48,560 nt of DNA from Gammaproteobacteria bacterium (lineage in GTDB: Bacteria; Pseudomonadota; Gammaproteobacteria; Acidiferrobacterales; Sulfurifustaceae), in contig JACQFZ010000025.1 of the NCBI GenBank assembly GCA_016199745.1, forward strand, positions 1-48,560, in the 5' to 3' direction. This document shows, piece by piece, positions 3,152 through 36,128 of the stretch. Made by a program: the position numbers and the translations under genes. The notes under the pieces were generated by a model that saw nothing but the letters and a program-made list of their open reading frames with translations, was not told where the DNA came from and ran no database searches. Within the stretch, counting starts at the first letter, position 1. Each line of letters starts with the position of its first letter.

Positions 3152-3727
3152 TTAAAGGGATGACTTATTGCAGGGTGATCGAGTCGATAACCGAGACACC
3201 ATCGGCGCGAGATAGAAAATCACTTGGTTTAGTTTGCCGCCGCCGGAACGCCAGAGAATTTGAATCGCCGGGCACGAGCCGGTGCGGATCTCGGTGTGAC
3301 GGCTGAAGTGAATGGAGAAGCGGCGGTTCTCGAAAGTGAACTGCAGGCGATGGTATTCGGGGAGATAGAGCGTGCCGCGGACGTGGTCGACTAGATAGCG
3401 GCCGAAGGTAACGGCGTCTTCTCGATGGCGAGTGTGGTTTTGGGGCCAGAAGGTTTGGGCGTAAGCGAAGAACAGCGACTCGGCGCGATCGGCTAATTGC
3501 CTGAAGGTTTTCGGGAGGAAGCGCCGCACCTCGCACAAGCGTTTGCGAACGAGTGTCTCGGCTTGGGCGTCGAGATGTTCCGGTGCGAGTGCGAGGAAAG
3601 CCGGCTTGTCGGATTCGCGAATCGACATCTGCCGCGTGCATTCGTCGCGGTCGCGGCGGAATAGATCGCGTAAGTCGCGGTCGGTGAGCAGCTTAGCGAG
3701 GGCGGTGGTGAAATCAATCTCAGGCAT
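3152..3727 (-). CDS. Putative partner protein of the DUF692/MNIO enzyme
   Basis: This 191-residue soluble protein has no family I can name with certainty. Its ATG (3725-3727) lies inside the end of the MNIO gene (8-base overlap), so the two are translationally coupled. The N-terminal 60 residues have the pattern L-x-x-L-L-T-D-x-x-L-R-x-x-F-x-x-D followed by an alanine/glutamate stretch ending V-R-K-R. This resembles helical N-terminal domains of proteins that accompany DUF692 enzymes (as MbnC, TglI and BufC do). The remainder has many aromatics and ends with a basic, Ser-rich tail. By analogy it would present the peptide substrate to the oxygenase. The role is inferred from position; the sequence gives no catalytic motif. 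Confidence 0.6.
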   Translation of the reverse strand: MPEIDFTTALAKLLTDRDLRDLFRRDRDECTRQMSIRESDKPAFLALAPEHLDAQAETLVRKRLCEVRRFLPKTFRQLADRAESLFFAYAQTFWPQNHTRHREDAVTFGRYLVDHVRGTLYLPEYHRLQFTFENRRFSIHFSRHTEIRTGSCPAIQILWRSGGGKLNQVIFYLAPMVSRLSTRSPCNKSSL

Positions 3728-4517
3728 GAGCCGGCTCTAGCATGGCCTGGAGCAATTCCAAGTCGGCGGCAAATTCAACGGGCGACGGGAAGTGGTGGTC
3801 GCGCTCGACGATCACTGCCTGCACTGGCGCATAGTCGAGGACGTTGGCGATCAGCACCAGTAGGTCTTCTTGAATGGCTTCGGCGTGCAGGTCTTCCCAG
3901 CGGCCGTTGTGCTTCGAGTAGCCGACGACGTGCAGCTGCACGATGCGTTTCGGATCGATCTCGTGCAGCCATTGCTCGGGATCGAAGTTGTGGTTGCGGG
4001 CGTTGATATAAAGATTGGTTACATCCAGCAACAATCCGCAACCGGAACGGTCGCACAACCGATTCAGGAACTCGGTCTCGGGCATCGTTCCGTCGAGCCG
4101 CAAGTGCGAGGTGATGTTCTCGAGGATCAGCGGCTTGTTGCAACGCTCCAGCAACTCACGCGCATGGTCGGCGAAGATGGCCAACGTTTCTTCTGTTGGC
4201 AGGACGGGATTGAGATGGCCGAGGTCGACATCGGCAGTGCGTGTGAAGGCGACGTGCTCGCTGATCCATAACGGATCGGCTGCCTTAACGACACGTACAA
4301 ACTGGGCCAACGTTTCGGCATCGAGTGGGCCGGGTGTGCCCAACGATAGTCCCAGGCCATGCACGAACAACGGATAGTCGCGGCGCAATTCCTTGAGGCG
4401 CTCCTCGCCGGCGTCGAAAAAATGCTCGGCGGTGATTTCCAGGCAACTGATCTGCGCAGGACGCGTATCGATCCAGCGCGCCAGCTCACGCCGATAACCG
4501 ATGCCTAGCCGCCGCAT
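3720..4517 (-). CDS. DUF692 / MNIO family iron-dependent peptide-modifying enzyme
   Basis: A TIM-barrel protein of about 265 residues in the DUF692 (PF05114) family, multinuclear non-heme iron oxygenases that rework cysteine residues of ribosomal peptides (MbnB, TglH, BufB and ChrH are characterised members). Family landmarks appear in order: L-E-I-T-A-E-H-F-F, F-V-H-G, W-I-S-E-H, L-I-L-E-N-I, L-L-L-D-V-T-N-L-Y-I-N-A-x-N-H, Q-L-H-V-V-G-Y, D-L-H and V-E-R-D-H-H. These supply the His/Asp/Glu/Asn metal ligands. The start is either ATG 4517 or GTG 4526; a GGAGG lies upstream of both, inside the neighbouring gene. The beginning of this gene overlaps the codons of the Cys/Gly tail of the preceding gene, and its end overlaps the partner gene. 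The natural substrate is inferred to be that tail. Confidence 0.88.
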   Translation of the reverse strand: MRRLGIGYRRELARWIDTRPAQISCLEITAEHFFDAGEERLKELRRDYPLFVHGLGLSLGTPGPLDAETLAQFVRVVKAADPLWISEHVAFTRTADVDLGHLNPVLPTEETLAIFADHARELLERCNKPLILENITSHLRLDGTMPETEFLNRLCDRSGCGLLLDVTNLYINARNHNFDPEQWLHEIDPKRIVQLHVVGYSKHNGRWEDLHAEAIQEDLLVLIANVLDYAPVQAVIVERDHHFPSPVEFAADLELLQAMLEPAHA

Positions 4518-5128
4518 CCGCCGCACCCCCCTCCGCAGCTACTGCTGCCGCAGCCGCCGCCACAACCGCCACTCGAATTGCCGTTGCTCGAATTCCAATT
4601 GCGGGAAATTTCGGTACGTGCCGTCAAAAAGAAAAAACCAAAGACCATGAGAACAAACAAACCGAAAAATTTGCTCATACCCTGCGAGAGCCCGTAGAGC
4701 AGGCGTTCGACGCCGATGCCTTCGAAGATCAGCAACGACAGATAATTGGGCACATCGCCTTCGCCGAAAAAGCGGAGCAGATAAGTACCCAGGAAAGAAA
4801 GCAGGAGTGCAAAAAAGTAGAACACGAGGAATTCGGGTCCGTCAAATCCCGTCTGCACGCGATAGGCAGACAACAACACGAGTACCGTCAACAATAGTCC
4901 ACACACCCAGAACACGGTCTGACTAGGCGCCGCTATCGTTTCCGCGAAAGCAGCCGTTGCCGACTTTGTATCGGTTTTGAACGGAAGCGCGTTGCGAAAT
5001 TCGAAGTCGCGTCTGCAACGTGGGCAACGCAGTTGATCCCAAGGCGCAGGCTTGCCAATCGTGCGTTGCTGCGCCAGACACGCCGGGCAACGGACGATGG
5101 TTCCGGCTAATGTGTCGGTCGTGGCCAT
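4505..5128 (-). CDS. Zinc-ribbon membrane protein with Cys/Gly-rich C-terminal tail; candidate MNIO substrate
   Basis: A 207-residue protein with three parts. Residues 14-38 form a C-x2-C...C-x2-C zinc ribbon. Three hydrophobic segments follow at about 72-90, 100-118 and 154-170. The tail, after about 177, is Asn/Ser-rich and then almost only Gly, Ser and Cys, with five cysteines spaced C-x3-C-x4-C-x3-C-x2-C and ending Gly-Gly. Large membrane proteins with such tails are known to occur beside DUF692 enzymes (NCBI family TIGR04222 is the case I recall), but this zinc-ribbon N-terminus is a different architecture. I start at ATG 5128, with GGAGGT close upstream; ATG 5143 is possible. It overlaps the nucleotidyltransferase gene upstream and the MNIO gene downstream. 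Inference: the tail is the ribosomal peptide substrate and the rest anchors it. Confidence 0.8.
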   Translation of the reverse strand: MATTDTLAGTIVRCPACLAQQRTIGKPAPWDQLRCPRCRRDFEFRNALPFKTDTKSATAAFAETIAAPSQTVFWVCGLLLTVLVLLSAYRVQTGFDGPEFLVFYFFALLLSFLGTYLLRFFGEGDVPNYLSLLIFEGIGVERLLYGLSQGMSKFFGLFVLMVFGFFFLTARTEISRNWNSSNGNSSGGCGGGCGSSSCGGGCGGCGG

Positions 5129-5847
5129 TTGACCTCCATCCATTGCACGGCGCTATCGAGCAGACGGAACAGGCGGGAATGAAAATTCTCTATCTCGTCC
5201 GCTGAAAGCCGATGCGAATCCTGCTTCAGCTTCAACAGGTCATGCAATACCGACGCATCTACACCGAGATGCTGTTCTAGCGGGGCAATACGCGCATCGA
5301 AGTCGTTAGCGACCTCGATCCCTGAAAGCCGTAAGAGCTCGGACAGGTCGGTAAATATTTTAGCGATGAGACCTAACAGAAACTGCGGATAACGACGGCG
5401 GTCGTTGCCCGACACGACGAAGAAATGCACGCAGCGCAAGCGCAAGTTCCGCAGCGATTGCTCGCAGAGAAAACGCAAGATGTCTTGGCTCACGTTGATA
5501 CCGTCGAACGGATCGACGCCGGCAAGAACGCGATAGTGGCGTTTGATGCTACGAAATTTTATCGGGAAGCACTCGACGGTTCGCTCCATTCCGCGACGTC
5601 CGACAATGAATGGACTAACGACGACCTTTCCGCGAACCGCTGCCGCAATCGCCGAATGCGCTTCTGGCGTGGATTCGTTCAGGACCAATAACAAATTAAT
5701 GTCGGAAACTTTCGGAACGATGTCGCCACGCACTGCGCTGCCGTATAGCACACAGGAATAGAGATTTTCGCCGAGCCCTTGCGTGAGGGCGGCGGTCACC
5801 TGTTCGATCGCAGTCTGATAGTACGAAGGGACATTAGCGACTTCCAC
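5107..5847 (-). CDS. Nucleotidyltransferase-fold protein with altered catalytic residues
   Basis: A 246-residue protein beginning at GTG 5847, with GGAGG about 10 bases upstream. The motif L-Y-G-S-A-V-R-G-D (Gly36-Ser37) and following S-D-I-N-L-L-L-V-L mark the pol-beta/minimal nucleotidyltransferase fold. Later F-P-I-K-F-R-S-I-K and R-V-L-A-G-V-D-P-F match the usual P-x-E-F-x-x-I-K...VLxGxDPF region. The second acidic residue of the D-x-D pair is Asn51, and the usual Glu in P-x-E-F is Lys97, so catalysis is doubtful. The C-terminal half is helical. It is the first gene of the overlapping four-gene operon; its end overlaps the Cys/Gly-tail gene by about 22 bases. It may bind nucleotide or act as a regulator; function unknown. 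Confidence 0.7.
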   Translation of the reverse strand: MEVANVPSYYQTAIEQVTAALTQGLGENLYSCVLYGSAVRGDIVPKVSDINLLLVLNESTPEAHSAIAAAVRGKVVVSPFIVGRRGMERTVECFPIKFRSIKRHYRVLAGVDPFDGINVSQDILRFLCEQSLRNLRLRCVHFFVVSGNDRRRYPQFLLGLIAKIFTDLSELLRLSGIEVANDFDARIAPLEQHLGVDASVLHDLLKLKQDSHRLSADEIENFHSRLFRLLDSAVQWMEVKWPRPTH

Positions 5848-8108: not shown

Positions 8109-8768
8109 CTAACTCTTATCTGCCTCCATCTCCTTAATGAAGGTGTCTGCTTCGTTGATCGAGCGATTCATATCCGTCACTAAAGCGCCGATGTCCGATT
8201 CGATTTTCGCGCGCTCGTTGCGGAGCGAGGCAATGGCGCGGGCGTTGAGGTTGTGCTTTAGCACCAGGTAGCGATCGCGGTACGCGGCGAGTACCGGATC
8301 GAGCTTCTTCTCGGCGCGCTTCATGACGGTAATGAGTTTTTGATAGCGGCTACGCGTCGCTTCCAGCTGGCGTTCGCTGGAGTGGCGCAGGTCGGGATTC
8401 GAATATTGTTTGAGCTCTTTATTCCACTCGTCGAACAAATCACCCGCCACCCGTTCGACGTCGGCGACGCGCTTACGCACGGCGTCGGCATGCTCCTCGC
8501 TGTCTTCGTAAGCCTTCTTCAGTTTGTTGTACTGCTGCTCCAACTGGCCGCCGGAGAAATTAGTGACGCTGATGAACTGGGCGAGCGCCGATTCGAATTG
8601 TTGCTTCGCTTGTTGCTGCGATTTACGCGCGTCGTCGACACGATCGATAAGAATGTCGCGCTTCTCGTAGCCGAGTTTCTCCATCGCGCCGTAATAGGCT
8701 TGTTGGCAGCCAATGGTTATCAGCGCGGCGGCAATGAGCGCGGCGCACGCGATGTTGCGCGCGTTCAA
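8109..8768 (-). CDS. DUF2959-family lipoprotein
   Basis: A 219-residue protein with a lipoprotein signal (lipobox I-T-I-G-C at about 17-21) followed by C-Q-Q-A-Y-Y-G-A-M-E-K, the typical opening of DUF2959 proteins. The rest is nearly all charged alpha helix with long coiled-coil segments (about 35-120 and 130-215) rich in Lys, Glu, Gln and Arg. It probably sits on the inner face of the outer membrane or the periplasmic face of the inner membrane. Its start overlaps the stop of the yidB-like gene as ATGA (8765-8768), so the pair is translationally coupled. Function of the family is not established. Confidence 0.8.
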   Translation of the reverse strand: MNARNIACAALIAAALITIGCQQAYYGAMEKLGYEKRDILIDRVDDARKSQQQAKQQFESALAQFISVTNFSGGQLEQQYNKLKKAYEDSEEHADAVRKRVADVERVAGDLFDEWNKELKQYSNPDLRHSSERQLEATRSRYQKLITVMKRAEKKLDPVLAAYRDRYLVLKHNLNARAIASLRNERAKIESDIGALVTDMNRSINEADTFIKEMEADKS

Positions 8769-9178
8769 TGGCGGAGGAAACGACTGACGAGTTGCGCTAG
8801 CGCGTCGTTGGCTTTGTCGCTTTCCGGGAGCTTGCTGTCGGGCGTTAGCTTGTCGACCAGCTGCAGCAACACGTTTGCCAGACCGCGCGAGGCGTCGGGT
8901 TCGGACAGGCCGGCGGCGTTAGCGATTTGCCGTAGGCGATCTTCGCCGAGCACGGTCTGCAACTCTTGTGGTGAGATCGGCCGATTTTCGCCGGCGGAAA
9001 TCCACGAAGCGATGGTGTCGCCGTGGCCCTGCTTGTTGAACAGCTGCGCCAGGCCGCTCAAGCCGCCGACGTTGTCACTGGTGATCAAATGCGCGGCGGC
9101 ACCGATCAAGCTGTTCTGTTCTCTGTCGCCGGTCAGCTGGCCGATGATGCCTTTGCCGATGCTGTCGAAGAAACTCAT
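8765..9178 (-). CDS. YidB-like DUF937 protein
   Basis: A 137-residue protein resembling E. coli YidB (DUF937). It opens with M-S-F-F-D-S-I-G-K and has a glycine-rich G-G-L-S-G-L-A-Q-L-F stretch. It then shows the diagnostic I-A-S-W-I-S-x-G-E-N-x-P-I-S-x-x-E-L-Q and L-L-P/L-x-L-V-D-K-L-T-P patterns. GGAGG lies six bases before ATG 9178. It is cytoplasmic, with no signal peptide. First gene of a two-gene unit with the DUF2959 lipoprotein. Role unknown; the family is common in proteobacteria. Confidence 0.85.
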   Translation of the reverse strand: MSFFDSIGKGIIGQLTGDREQNSLIGAAAHLITSDNVGGLSGLAQLFNKQGHGDTIASWISAGENRPISPQELQTVLGEDRLRQIANAAGLSEPDASRGLANVLLQLVDKLTPDSKLPESDKANDALAQLVSRFLRH

Positions 9179-9484
9179 ACGCTGCCTCCTAATGCGAACC
9201 CGCTAGCGTCAGGACGAGTTGTGTTTTTTGGATGCTAGGGTATCAGGTAAGTTCGCAGCGGCGCTTCGGGGTTTGCTCGCATAACCAAACAAACAACAGG
9301 GTATTGTCCACCCGCCTCCTGCGGGAAATGCCACCTACCGTCTAACCACAAGTGCGCACACGACGCCCATATTCGCGCACCGGCATGCCGCTGGAATTCA
9401 GCTCGCGCACCCTGCGCCGGCGCCGGAAACCGTACGACAGCGGCGGGTCCTGATGAAAAGCGATGGTGAAGAAATAAATTCCCG
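9179..9484. other. Intergenic region without recognisable gene
   Basis: These 306 bases lie between the nuclease-like gene and the yidB-like gene. Short open frames exist but have no recognisable domain, start signal or codon pattern. I see only the presumed yidB promoter zone near 9185-9240. Confidence 0.45.
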
Positions 9485-9967
9485 TCAACGACGCTTGTGA
9501 TATTTCCACGGCGGCACCGGTGCCGGATCCTGCCACAGGCCGATCTGTTTGGTGCGTGCCGACTCTTCGGCTTCTTGATAAGCGCGCTGATCATCGGCCG
9601 ACAACTCCGATTGATTCGGCTCGGAATACCAAGCGCGGCCGGTATACAACTGGTGCATACCGAGATCGCGGCTACCAGCCAGCACCTTGCCGATGATCCG
9701 GTTGTTGTGGTCGCGCTTTTGCCATTGGACGGCGACTGTTTGGCCGACGGCGAGCAGCCCTAAGGATCGGCGCGATGCATCGCTGAATGCCTGACCGCGC
9801 TTCGGCGCCTCGATGCCGGCGAGTCGCACGCGAACTTGGCCGTGTGTCGAGTCGTCTTGCACGACCAAGATATCGCCGTCGGTGACGCGAACAACCGTGC
9901 CGGCGAAATTAGCGGCATAGCTGCTCGCTGACAGCAGCAGTAGAAGAAAGCTGGCGGTGAGTTTCAT
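9485..9967 (-). CDS. Secreted thermonuclease-fold (SNase-like) protein with altered active site
   Basis: A 160-residue protein with a signal peptide (cleavage near SYA-A, residue 18-19) and a staphylococcal-nuclease OB fold. Conserved features are V-T-D-G-D (Asp30, Asp32), V-R-L-A-G-I (Arg48, matching SNase Arg35) and N-N-R-I-I-G (Arg90, matching Arg87). The usual A-G-I-D-A-P-E is A-G-I-E-A-P-K. So the calcium ligand position is Glu53 and the general-base position (SNase Glu43) is Lys56. Nuclease activity is therefore doubtful; it may bind nucleic acid or ligand only. Its ATG overlaps the TGA of the DUF3014 gene (ATGA, 9964-9967), so the two are co-translated. The last residues are basic (K-Y-H-K-R-R). 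Confidence 0.8.
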   Translation of the reverse strand: MKLTASFLLLLLSASSYAANFAGTVVRVTDGDILVVQDDSTHGQVRVRLAGIEAPKRGQAFSDASRRSLGLLAVGQTVAVQWQKRDHNNRIIGKVLAGSRDLGMHQLYTGRAWYSEPNQSELSADDQRAYQEAEESARTKQIGLWQDPAPVPPWKYHKRR

Positions 9968-33870: not shown

Positions 33871-34374
33871 CTAGCGGCGTTCGAGGGAAGACGGATCGCG
33901 ATCGAGGGTTAAATCGCGCGCGAGAATGATGGCGTCTTCACGACCATCGCGCGCCGGGTAGTAATCTTTACGAATACCGATTTCGTCGAAACCGAGGCTG
34001 GTATACAGCTTATAGGCCGCGGTGTTGGACACGCGCACCTCCAACAACGCCACGCGCGCGCCTTGGCGACGCGCCAGCTTGACCAAGTAGTTAACCATGG
34101 CCCGGCCGAGACCGCGCCGCTGGTAATCGGGGCGCACACAGATGTTGAGTAAGTGACACTCACCGGCACCGATCGACATGAGGCCGTGGCCAATCACACC
34201 GGCCGGTGTTTCGTAGACATAACAAAAATAACCGACTCGCAGACAATCGCGAAAAATCGATCGCGTCCAGGGGAATTCGTAAGACGCGCGCTCCACATCC
34301 ATGACCGCCGTCAAATCCGCTTCGCGCATCGGCCGTAGCCGCGCGCGTTCGGGGGCGACGACGGCGGCGCTCAC
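33871..34374 (-). CDS. rimI: Ribosomal protein S18 alanine N-acetyltransferase
   Basis: A 167-residue GNAT acetyltransferase that modifies the N-terminal alanine of ribosomal protein S18. I use GTG 34374, which overlaps the uracil-DNA glycosylase stop as GTGA. Landmarks are Y-E-F-P-W-T (the RimI substrate-site tryptophan region), [19 protein letters not shown] (acetyl-CoA loop) and [29 protein letters not shown]. Its pairing with the glycosylase gene is common in gammaproteobacteria. Confidence 0.92.
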
Positions 34375-36128
34375 GTCGGCGCCTCCGCAATCTTGCGGGC
34401 GATACACAAATCATCCCAAGCGCGGCGCTTGTCGCCCGGCGTGCGCAATAAATACGCCGGATGATACGTCACCACCAACGGCGTTCCTTGATACGACAAC
34501 CGTTGACCGCGCAGCCGCGACAACGGTGCATCGGTCTTGAGCAGGCTATGCGCGGCGTGACGGCCGAGAGCGACGATCAGGCGCGGTTGTATCAACGCGA
34601 TCTGGCGGATGAGGTAAGGCTCGCAGCAAGCGACTTCGTTCGGTTGCGGATCGCGATTACCGGGTGGACGGCAATTGTGCACGACGCCGCCGGCGGTGAC
34701 GAAATTGTGCGTTTCATCGACGTCGATACAAAAGAACGTTGTATCGGTGCGCGGCTGGTCGGTGATATCGGAAATCTCAAAATCGTCATACAAAACTTCG
34801 ACTGGCGCAGGATCGAAACGACTGGGATCGAACGATATTGCATCCGCCACCTGCGGATGCAACTTGTAGCGCATTACCGGAGGTACGTAGGGAGCGATGC
34901 ACTCAGACAACGCTTTCGTCGCTTCAACATCGAAATGCAGCCGACCCCTCGCGGCCTTTGCCCGAAGCCCCAATCGCGCAAGTGCTTGCAGCAGAATCGG
35001 GAAATCCGCTTCCGGAAATCCATGCGCCGCAATTTCAGACAACGGCTGACGCCCGTCGCGGATGCGGGTATACCCGTCATCCATGAACCAAAACGCAAGC
35101 ATTCGATCATTGAGTCGATCGGCAATCCAAGAGGGTACCCGCTTTGTCGGCCGATAAAAGTCTTTGCGCAGAATACGCAGGGCGCGATTGGCACGGGTGC
35201 GCACCTGCACCGCCGGATACGCCCGTGGCCCGCCCGCTACGGCCGCAACCGTCAACTCATCTATCTGCGGACACAACTCTCGGAGCAAATCGGCTTTGAA
35301 TAACGCGTACGCGCGTTGAGCGGCCGAGTGGCTGAATGAAAGCAAGGTTCTGGTCGAGGCGATATAACCGTCACCCAAGACGGTGCCACACACGACATCA
35401 AACGCCAGCGGACTCAACCCTTGTCCGGTCGCGACTTGATCGCCAGATTGAAGCGCTTCGACAGGCACAAACCCGCGCCGCGTTAATACCTCGTGATCTC
35501 CAGTCAGCTGGACACTTACCCGTCCGCTGCCAGCATTTTTTGATGATTGATACGTCAAACGAAAAACGCGTCGCCCCCCAAGCGGGGATTCATGCCATCC
35601 GGTAACGCGACGTGGCACGAGCCTGCCGGCAGCATCAACCGACATCACCTCACCGCTATAACGCTGGCGAACTAAACGACCAATACGCTCCCATGAACCG
35701 TCGGCAAGCTGAACCAGTGCGTTATATCTCAAACATTTTAAAACGTTCGCTATGTACACCTCTTCGCGCTTCAGACCGAGCGCCTGGATCATGGCGTTCA
35801 GCAGCTGACCGGCACGGCCAACGAAGGGCTCGCCCTGACGATCCTCGTCCGCGCCCGGCGCTTCGCCGACGAACAACCATTGCGCCGAACGATTACCGAC
35901 ACCGAATACCGTTTGCTTGCGGGTTTTGTGCAAGTCGCAGCGGGTACAACCGGCGACCGCCTGCTGCAGGGGTCCCCACTCGGTGAGCGTGGGCGCGTCA
36001 ATCGCTACCGTCGGCGCGGCGACAGTACCAACCGCCGCTGGATCGGCGGCGGCAGACGCACGCGGTTGCCATAGCGTAACCCCCAGGGCTTCAAGATAGG
36101 CGCGGCGGATTGATTCAGGAGTCGACAT
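34371..36128 (-). CDS. Family 4-type uracil-DNA glycosylase precursor, interrupted by an intein
   Basis: A 585-residue precursor. The extein halves (1-131 and 486-585) join to a 231-residue iron-sulfur uracil-DNA glycosylase that removes uracil from DNA. Motifs are [20 protein letters not shown] (89-107) and V-V-T-Y-H-P-A-Y (553-559). Cluster ligands should be Cys61, Cys64, Cys486 and Cys502. A 354-residue intein (132-485) sits between N-V-L-K and C-R-P-P-G-N-R-D-P, so the splice nucleophile at +1 is itself the third cluster cysteine. The precursor starts at ATG 36128; its stop overlaps rimI. The N-terminal 55 residues are a Pro/Ala-rich extension typical of proteobacterial members. Without splicing the enzyme could not form its cluster. 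Confidence 0.93.
34674..35735 (-). other. Intein with LAGLIDADG homing endonuclease in uracil-DNA glycosylase
   Basis: These codons encode residues 132-485 of the precursor. The splicing block A is [14 protein letters not shown]. Block B is [12 protein letters not shown] (His212). Blocks F and G are [21 protein letters not shown] followed by Cys. All residues for canonical class 1 splicing are present: Cys132, His212, His484, Asn485 and Cys486 (+1). Between them are two LAGLIDADG-like motifs, V-L-G-D-G-Y-I (Asp253) and F-W-F-M-D-D-G-Y (Asp350/351), so the homing endonuclease also looks intact. Base composition is somewhat less GC-rich than the extein, consistent with separate origin. Confidence 0.93.

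What the first reader, a model, noticed from the sequence alone, without database searches (positions are those of the whole stretch)
3152..5847. Candidate new peptide-modification system: MNIO enzyme, partner, and a membrane protein with a Cys/Gly tail
Seen: four minus-strand genes overlap end to start. One is a DUF692/MNIO enzyme. The gene immediately before it encodes a zinc-ribbon, three-helix membrane protein ending in five cysteines among glycines (C-x3-C-x4-C-x3-C-x2-C-GG). Known: MNIO enzymes (MbnB, TglH, BufB, ChrH) alter cysteines of ribosomal peptides using a partner protein. Inference: the tail is modified while tethered to the membrane, and may bind metal. A membrane protein with its own zinc ribbon as substrate is unlike the short leader-core peptides of the studied systems.
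Basis: partly seen in the sequence, partly recalled or inferred. Interest (0 to 1): 0.92.

Follow-up and report, generated by a model that had tools for sequence, protein, structure and literature searches.

The report
Membrane protein tail beside MNIO enzyme
Four overlapping bacterial genes form a conserved module in which an iron enzyme of the kind that chemically modifies cysteines sits next to a zinc-ribbon membrane protein with a cysteine/glycine tail; the tail is a plausible target, but related proteins carry the same tail in genomes where no such enzyme was found.

Summary
Four overlapping minus-strand genes recur, in order, at 11 of 11 loci of this MNIO clade, otherwise planctomycete: nucleotidyltransferase-like protein (interrupted at one locus), zinc-ribbon membrane protein with Cys/Gly tail, MNIO, short partner. 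The tail protein fails the TIGR04222 model, but its membrane core is homologous to that of TIGR04222 proteins, which carry the same tails and are already proposed in print as MNIO substrates (PMC12452194). It fits that paper's 'adjamnio-I' numbers, though the alignment could not be checked. So this is a variant of a known, untested kind. Homologues indicate four membrane helices, putting the tail on the zinc-ribbon (probably cytosolic) side. For the tail as target: MNIO is always beside this family and was found beside none of nine TPM proteins, without Cys tails, that adjoin the same nucleotidyltransferase-like gene. Against: of 47 tailed TIGR04222 genes examined in planctomycete genomes, 36 have no MNIO found beside them, and 26 of 35 such genomes have none at all. 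The nucleotidyltransferase-like protein lacks the catalytic DxD and elsewhere adjoins TPM or TIGR04222 proteins, mostly glycine-tailed. No modification has been shown.

The parts
5107..5847 (-). nucleotidyltransferase-like protein, 246 aa, no DxD motif (SDIN in the window)
   Evidence: conserved upstream of the tail gene in the clade
4505..5143 (-). zinc-ribbon, probably four-helix membrane protein with Cys/Gly tail, 212 aa, 10 Cys
5015..5089 (-). zinc ribbon, residues 19-43 (CPAC...CPRC)
   Evidence: read; C19 and C22 invariant in 9 aligned proteins
4595..4921 (-). membrane core, residues about 75-183, four predicted helices; homologous to the TIGR04222 membrane core
4508..4564 (-). Cys/Gly tail, residues 194-212 (five Cys, ends CGGCGG)
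   Evidence: 14 of 15 family proteins have CGGCG in the last 12 residues
3720..4526 (-). MNIO (DUF692, PF05114) enzyme, 268 aa; GTG start, alternative ATG at 4517
3152..3727 (-). partner protein, 191 aa: N-terminal helical domain with weak LigA/Os1348 resemblance, then strands; candidate PME-type 2

Best explanation
The module is a divergent, compact form of the TIGR04222/MNIO arrangement. Shown: the tail protein, MNIO and partner are encoded side by side in one conserved order, the MNIO keeps all iron ligands, and the membrane core is related to TIGR04222. Inferred: the partner brings the C-terminal tail of the membrane protein to the MNIO, which oxidatively modifies one or more tail cysteines. 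The even helix count puts the tail on the same side as the zinc ribbon, so the reaction could happen in the cytosol on the already inserted protein, with no leader peptide, cleavage or export. The product would be a membrane-anchored tail with altered cysteine chemistry, most simply for binding a soft metal such as copper. The nucleotidyltransferase-like protein is probably a non-catalytic companion of the glycine-tailed membrane protein rather than part of the modifying enzyme.
For: Module conserved at 11 of 11 loci of a single MNIO group with support 100/100. A search from the membrane-protein side gave 10 loci in 9 of 397 genomes whose matches span the whole membrane core, each with an MNIO next to it, one cut by a contig end. 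Nine of nine TglH iron ligands kept in 35 of 35 MNIOs aligned. Different scaffolds directly upstream of planctomycete MNIOs share a Gly-rich, Cys-bearing C-terminus: zinc-ribbon proteins, TIGR04222, and in one genome a small single-helix protein ending GCGGGD. Among loci of the nucleotidyltransferase-like gene, MNIO is beside 11 of 13 Cys-tailed proteins and 0 of 9 TPM proteins without a Cys tail (Fisher p 2.2e-4; loci are not independent and two TPM loci lie on short contigs). Even helix numbers in 13 of 15 proteins.
Against: Tails of the same kind occur without MNIO: of 39 recognised TIGR04222 genes in the loci have no MNIO found beside them (L097 ends at a contig edge and L099 has under 1 kb downstream); with the 8 tailed genes of the same 198 genomes already held as L041 and L043-L049, all beside an MNIO, that is 36 of 47. 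26 of 35 such genomes have no PF05114 match at all (assemblies may be incomplete). 25 of the 36 share the CGGCG ending. At L173 and in genome G804 (L177, contig end) the nucleotidyltransferase-like gene adjoins a Cys-tailed TIGR04222 gene with no MNIO seen next to it. No modification, metal binding or expression has been measured. Topology is inferred from hydropathy and a low-confidence model.
Confidence: 0.5

Rival explanations
1. The Cys/Gly tail is a structural or metal-binding element of its own, inherited with the TIGR04222-like membrane core, and MNIO acts on another residue of the membrane protein or on another protein. The tail then needs no modification to work.
For: Tails kept in 36 of 47 examined TIGR04222 genes without an adjacent MNIO found and in 26 of 35 genomes with no MNIO. 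The zinc ribbons supply other cysteines; total Cys per protein is 10 to 21.
Against: In the zinc-ribbon family MNIO was present at every locus examined. The small single-helix protein upstream of the G804 MNIO has no zinc ribbon, yet ends in a Gly-rich segment with one Cys.
Confidence: 0.3
2. The whole module is a membrane-associated complex built on Gly-rich tails: the nucleotidyltransferase-like protein recognises Gly-rich tails of TPM, TIGR04222 and zinc-ribbon proteins, as part of membrane maintenance, and MNIO is a late addition in Cys-tailed versions.
For: In all 11 loci of the nucleotidyltransferase-like gene found outside the zinc-ribbon family a neighbour is a TPM protein (9) or TIGR04222 (2); 8 of the 9 TPM proteins have Gly-rich tails; a LemA gene is present at L167.
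Against: None of 12 MNIO-adjacent TIGR04222 loci, and only one of the 36 without MNIO (L097), shows a nucleotidyltransferase-like gene in the stretches fetched, so it is not needed by the tail as such. Direct binding is untested.
Confidence: 0.25
3. The membrane protein is a conventional RiPP precursor whose tail is cut off, released or exported after modification, as in methanobactin or bufferin systems.
For: MNIO and a partner follow the candidate precursor gene, as in known clusters (PMC12452194).
Against: No protease or exporter was recognised among the four proteins. The N-terminus is a zinc ribbon, not an evident signal peptide (reading; no predictor run). The even helix count suggests a cytosolic tail.
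Confidence: 0.1

Closest known systems
TIGR04222 membrane proteins associated with MNIO enzymes (PMC12452194; passages and sections 13, 17, 18 read)
   Same: Multi-helix membrane protein with unstructured Gly/Ser/Cys C-terminal tail; gene often next to MNIO; partner lacks the DUF2063 signature; homologous membrane core; related MNIOs and partners.
   Different: No match to the TIGR04222 model; zinc ribbons at the N-terminus and no domain between the membrane helices; tail predicted here on the cytosolic side, whereas the paper predicts a periplasmic tail for TIGR04222; nucleotidyltransferase-like gene in front; MNIO present at every locus examined.
adjamnio-I family (PMC12452194, Table 2)
   Same: No family signature, 8 to 21 Cys, 122-293 residues, order precursor - MNIO - PME-type 2; here 10 to 21 Cys, 10 of 15 proteins 212-265 residues, same order.
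   Different: The passages read do not mention membrane helices, zinc ribbons, Gly tail or a nucleotidyltransferase-like gene for adjamnio-I; its alignment (Fig. S3) was not readable here, so identity is likely but unproven; 5 of 15 proteins here exceed 293 residues.
Bufferins and oxazolin-type MNIO operons, including two look-alikes in the same genome (L050, L051; assigned by eye)
   Same: MNIO with the same nine iron ligands, a Cys-bearing small gene upstream and a partner-sized gene downstream.
   Different: Their precursors are small, with signal peptides according to PMC12452194; the L050/L051 MNIOs fall in a separate group with support 100/100; the partner here lacks DUF2063.

Membership tests
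MNIO enzymes (PF05114) | match to the Pfam model over its cut-off | tested here: met
   230.1 bits against 25
MNIO enzymes (PF05114) | iron ligands of TglH (H71, H107, E151, D184, N187, H216, D229, H231, E258) | tested here: met
   ligands from PMC10880893; H56, H91, E136, D168, N171, H199, D212, H214, E241 by alignment
MNIO enzymes (PF05114) | oxidative modification of a peptide substrate | not testable with these tools
   needs expression and mass spectrometry
TIGR04222 membrane proteins | match to the NCBIfam model over its cut-off | tested here: not met
   no match for the window protein at E 1 or for 4 homologues at E 10, while 5 of 5 TIGR04222 proteins scored 70-100 bits (cut-off 43)
TIGR04222 membrane proteins | shared membrane core | tested here: met
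   profile comparison score 45.6 with the inserted domain left out, against a maximum of 16.4 in 100 column shuffles and 16.9 and 15.5 reversed; without leaving it out 36.5, probability 58.7%; 46 single TIGR04222 sequences score above 35 control membrane ORFs, p 3e-8
TIGR04222 membrane proteins | C-terminal Gly/Cys tail | tested here: met
adjamnio-I | size, Cys count and gene order of Table 2 | tested here: met
   window protein 212 aa, 10 Cys, followed by MNIO and a non-DUF2063 partner; 5 of 15 family proteins are longer than 293
adjamnio-I | alignment to the published family (Fig. S3) | not testable with these tools
PME-type 2 partner | encoded after MNIO without the DUF2063 signature | tested here: met
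PME-type 2 partner | structural likeness to NGO1945 (3dee) or TglI (8hi7) | tested here: inconclusive
   low-confidence model (pLDDT 56.7); neither entry in the rows shown; weak match to Os1348 (Z 5.9, rmsd 5.1, 72 aligned) and to LigA/SonA by sequence
Bufferins | DUF2063 partner (PME-type 1) | tested here: not met
   no DUF2063 model among the Pfam matches of 10 partners at E 1
Bufferins | Sec signal peptide on the precursor | not tested
   no predictor at hand; by eye the N-terminus is a zinc ribbon
Active aminoglycoside-type nucleotidyltransferases | GS ... DxD/E catalytic motif (recalled) | tested here: not met
   SDIN in the window; no DxD in the motif stretch of any of the 9 aligned proteins

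The most novel reading that the evidence does not exclude
MNIO enzymes modify, in place and on the cytosolic side, the C-terminal tails of integral membrane proteins that are never cleaved or exported: a post-translationally modified membrane protein rather than a peptide natural product. The same Gly-rich tails form a wider system, read by a dead nucleotidyltransferase-fold protein, that spans TPM, TIGR04222 and zinc-ribbon membrane proteins; MNIO chemistry was added where the tail carries cysteines.
Probability: 0.25. Interest if true: 0.75.

Novelty: new variant of a known kind. Interest (0 to 1): 0.5.

Why it matters
MNIO substrates shown so far, as far as the abstracts and passages seen here tell, are peptides. 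A membrane protein modified in place would extend this chemistry to ordinary membrane proteins. The compact zinc-ribbon family, linked to MNIO at every locus examined, is a cleaner test case than the large and loosely linked TIGR04222 family. The link between a dead nucleotidyltransferase-fold protein and Gly-tailed membrane proteins gives a first handle on a set of uncharacterised membrane genes.

Tried and rejected
TIGR04222 membership of the window protein: rejected by model score, kept as distant homology.

Tail as a marker of MNIO in general: rejected for the superfamily.

Three-helix topology with an external tail: disfavoured.

A hidden small precursor: the four genes overlap, leaving no room between them, and no Cys-rich ORF of 50 residues or more stood out in the flanks listed (by eye; shorter ORFs were not listed).

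Plasmid relatives of the tail protein: none. Relatives near the host: of 60 relatives searched for the tail protein only the own genome matched; in its phylum only the own MNIO at E 1e-60 among 398 genomes; in its class 10 other genomes of 185 have an MNIO at E 1e-40, 30-39% identical.

Partner fold: Foldseek and VIA-align on a weak model gave no convincing match; 3dee and 8hi7 were not in the rows shown, which proves nothing.

I kept the rows over 75 bits (8 genomes) and G955, whose match spans positions 45-205. I also looked at G1021 and G936, which have no tail or MNIO. The other listed rows, some reaching positions 140-156, were not examined, so orphan members could hide there.

TIGR04222 count: of 50 over-cut-off hits, 40 were fetched and 8 more were already in L041 and L043-L049; G695 and the second G736 hit were not fetched at length. 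In L120 my profile recognised no TIGR04222 ORF, so it was left out, giving 39 and 47.

Literature: searches for MNIO with nucleotidyltransferase and for multinuclear non-haem iron with zinc ribbon returned no paper. Searches returned PMC12452194 among others; one search returned only the NGO1945 structure paper (listing seen); (TPM domain, LemA, nucleotidyltransferase, two of three) found 115 papers, 10 listed, none relevant by title. This covers only the held open library.
Full report
WHAT IS THERE. Four minus-strand ORFs overlap by 37, 22 and 8 bases. In order of transcription they are a 246-residue nucleotidyltransferase-like protein (weak matches to aminoglycoside nucleotidyltransferase models, E 3.9e-6 at best and far below their cut-offs), a 212-residue membrane protein with an N-terminal zinc ribbon and a Cys/Gly tail, an MNIO (PF05114, 230 bits) and a 191-residue partner without a clear family. 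The AlphaFold2 model from three sequences has four helices there but low confidence (pLDDT 47.8).

CONSERVATION. A scan of public genome contigs with the MNIO gave two planctomycete MAG loci, L016 and L017, with the same four genes in the same order. A search of 297 genomes of that class with the MNIO profile found 16 at E 1e-50 or better, of which 6 belong to the close group (E below 1e-120). Fetched neighbourhoods and profile searches show the tail protein, MNIO and partner at 11 of 11 loci: the window, L016, L017, L035-L039, L152, L153 and L154. The nucleotidyltransferase-like gene is at all 11 too, but in L153 it lies in two pieces with a transposase-like ORF between them. Starting from the membrane protein instead, a search of 397 genomes of the class gave 8 genomes with strong matches over the membrane core plus a divergent one (G955), 10 loci in all, each with an MNIO next to it; in G955 (L157) the MNIO is cut by the contig end. 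Weaker rows of that search, mostly zinc-ribbon matches, were left unexamined except for two.

RELATION TO TIGR04222. Of the 10 weaker MNIO matches, 9 lie next to a TIGR04222-type protein with the same kind of tail (model match checked for five). The zinc-ribbon proteins do not match the TIGR04222 model. Their membrane cores are nevertheless homologous: profile comparison of the whole proteins without tails gives probability 58.7%; with the domain inserted between the TIGR04222 helices left out it scores 45.6 (probability 94.7%), against a maximum of 16.4 for 100 column shuffles and 16.9 and 15.5 for reversed profiles; each half alone scores 28. As single sequences, 46 TIGR04222 proteins score a median of 18.8 and 35 control membrane ORFs 11.8 (maximum 19.6), p 3e-8; only 22 of the 46 exceed every control, so the signal is moderate. 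In the MNIO tree the 11 zinc-ribbon-associated enzymes are one group (100/100), placed with nine TIGR04222-associated ones (90/96, not decisive, midpoint root); three other TIGR04222-associated MNIOs fall elsewhere. The window enzyme sits among planctomycete rows, next to L153 (92/91, not starred), which suggests horizontal acquisition. GC content around the module is 53-57%, slightly under most of the contig (57-61%).

IS THE TAIL THE TARGET? For: MNIO was present at every zinc-ribbon-family locus examined. Upstream of planctomycete MNIOs, different scaffolds share a Gly-rich, Cys-bearing C-terminus, including in G804 a small single-helix protein ending GCGGGD. The nucleotidyltransferase-like gene gives a contrast: it matches in 17 of 297 genomes, 6 with the zinc-ribbon module and 11 others. 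At those 11 it adjoins a TPM protein (9; PF04536 in 9 of 9) or a TIGR04222 protein (2). None of the 9 TPM loci, whose proteins have Cys-free Gly tails (8) or no such tail (1), showed an MNIO in the fetched stretch, two of which are short contigs; of 13 Cys-tailed loci, 11 have one (Fisher p 2.2e-4; the loci are related, so the number is only indicative). Against: in 198 genomes of the class, TIGR04222 exceeds its cut-off in 47 (50 hits). Of 40 fetched loci, 39 had a recognised TIGR04222 ORF, all with C-terminal cysteines (2 to 9 in the last 60 residues), and only 3 had an MNIO beside it. Counting the 8 already held through the MNIO search, 11 of 47 have an MNIO beside them and 36 do not; of these 36, L097 ends at a contig edge and L099 has under 1 kb downstream. 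Of 35 genomes with such tails and no adjacent MNIO, 26 have no MNIO anywhere in the assembly. So a Cys/Gly tail does not imply MNIO, and I put the tail-as-target claim at about one half.

MECHANISM. All nine TglH iron ligands (from passages of PMC10880893) are kept in 35 of 35 aligned MNIOs, so the enzyme should be able to hold its irons. The partner family has an N-terminal helical domain with weak likeness to LigA/Os1348-type RiPP domains (PF07746 in 3 of 10 members, best E 3.7e-6, not in the window member; SonA at E 0.03; Os1348 at Z 5.9) and lacks DUF2063. It is homologous by profile to the proteins encoded after MNIO in L040-L049 (10 of 10 loci), which matches the published PME-type 2 class by position. 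Even helix numbers put tail and zinc ribbon on one side, the cytosol if the zinc ribbon is intracellular (inference). This differs from the periplasmic tail that PMC12452194 predicts for TIGR04222, and it would let a cytosolic MNIO act on the inserted protein. The nucleotidyltransferase-like protein shows no DxD in the motif stretch of any of the 9 aligned proteins and is best read as a non-catalytic companion of Gly-tailed membrane proteins.

NOVELTY. PMC12452194 (passages and sections 13, 17 and 18 read) already proposes membrane proteins with Cys/Gly tails as MNIO substrates, with PME-type 2 partners, and lists 'adjamnio-I' (100 sequences, 122-293 residues, 8 to 21 Cys, followed by MNIO and PME-type 2). 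The present family (10 to 21 Cys, same order) probably is, or overlaps, adjamnio-I; the supplementary alignment was not available. What I did not find in the held library is the zinc-ribbon and four-helix architecture, the membrane-core homology to TIGR04222, and the nucleotidyltransferase-like gene. Verdict: a new variant of a known, still untested kind.

Noticed in passing
L050 and L051 (own genome, contig C22): Two further MNIO loci in the same genome: one preceded by a small protein with CKGK-type repeats (oxazolin-like by eye), one by a DUF2282-like small protein with a sigma-factor-like gene upstream (bufferin-like by eye); no family search was run on them.
   Followed up: partly
L176:5184-5714: In planctomycete genome G804 the gene directly before the MNIO encodes a small single-helix protein with a Tyr-rich stretch and an Asp/Gly-rich tail ending in GCGGGD, a scaffold unlike zinc-ribbon or TIGR04222 proteins.
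   Followed up: partly
L178:4488-4811: Upstream of another planctomycete MNIO lies a short ORF ending in repeated CRRGC/CNRGC units (8 Cys), which looks like a precursor peptide; not compared with known families.
   Followed up: no
L166-L175: Nucleotidyltransferase-like genes stand next to TPM-domain genes (9 of 9 loci without TIGR04222), mostly with Gly-rich tails ending in ASW, GSW or GGW; a LemA gene is present at L167.
   Followed up: partly
L153:8020-10393: The nucleotidyltransferase-like gene of this module lies in two pieces with a transposase-like ORF (8297-9661) between them, while tail, MNIO and partner genes remain open.
   Followed up: no
window 34371-36128: A uracil-DNA-glycosylase-like ORF appears to contain a long inserted domain resembling an intein (by eye and recall).
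   Followed up: no
L038:6273-7370, L154:6587-7687: In two loci the tail protein has eight predicted helices, as if the membrane core were duplicated.
   Followed up: partly
L035:5808-7355, L152:6312-8347, L153:6376-7992: Three loci carry two tandem tail-protein genes before one MNIO.
   Followed up: no
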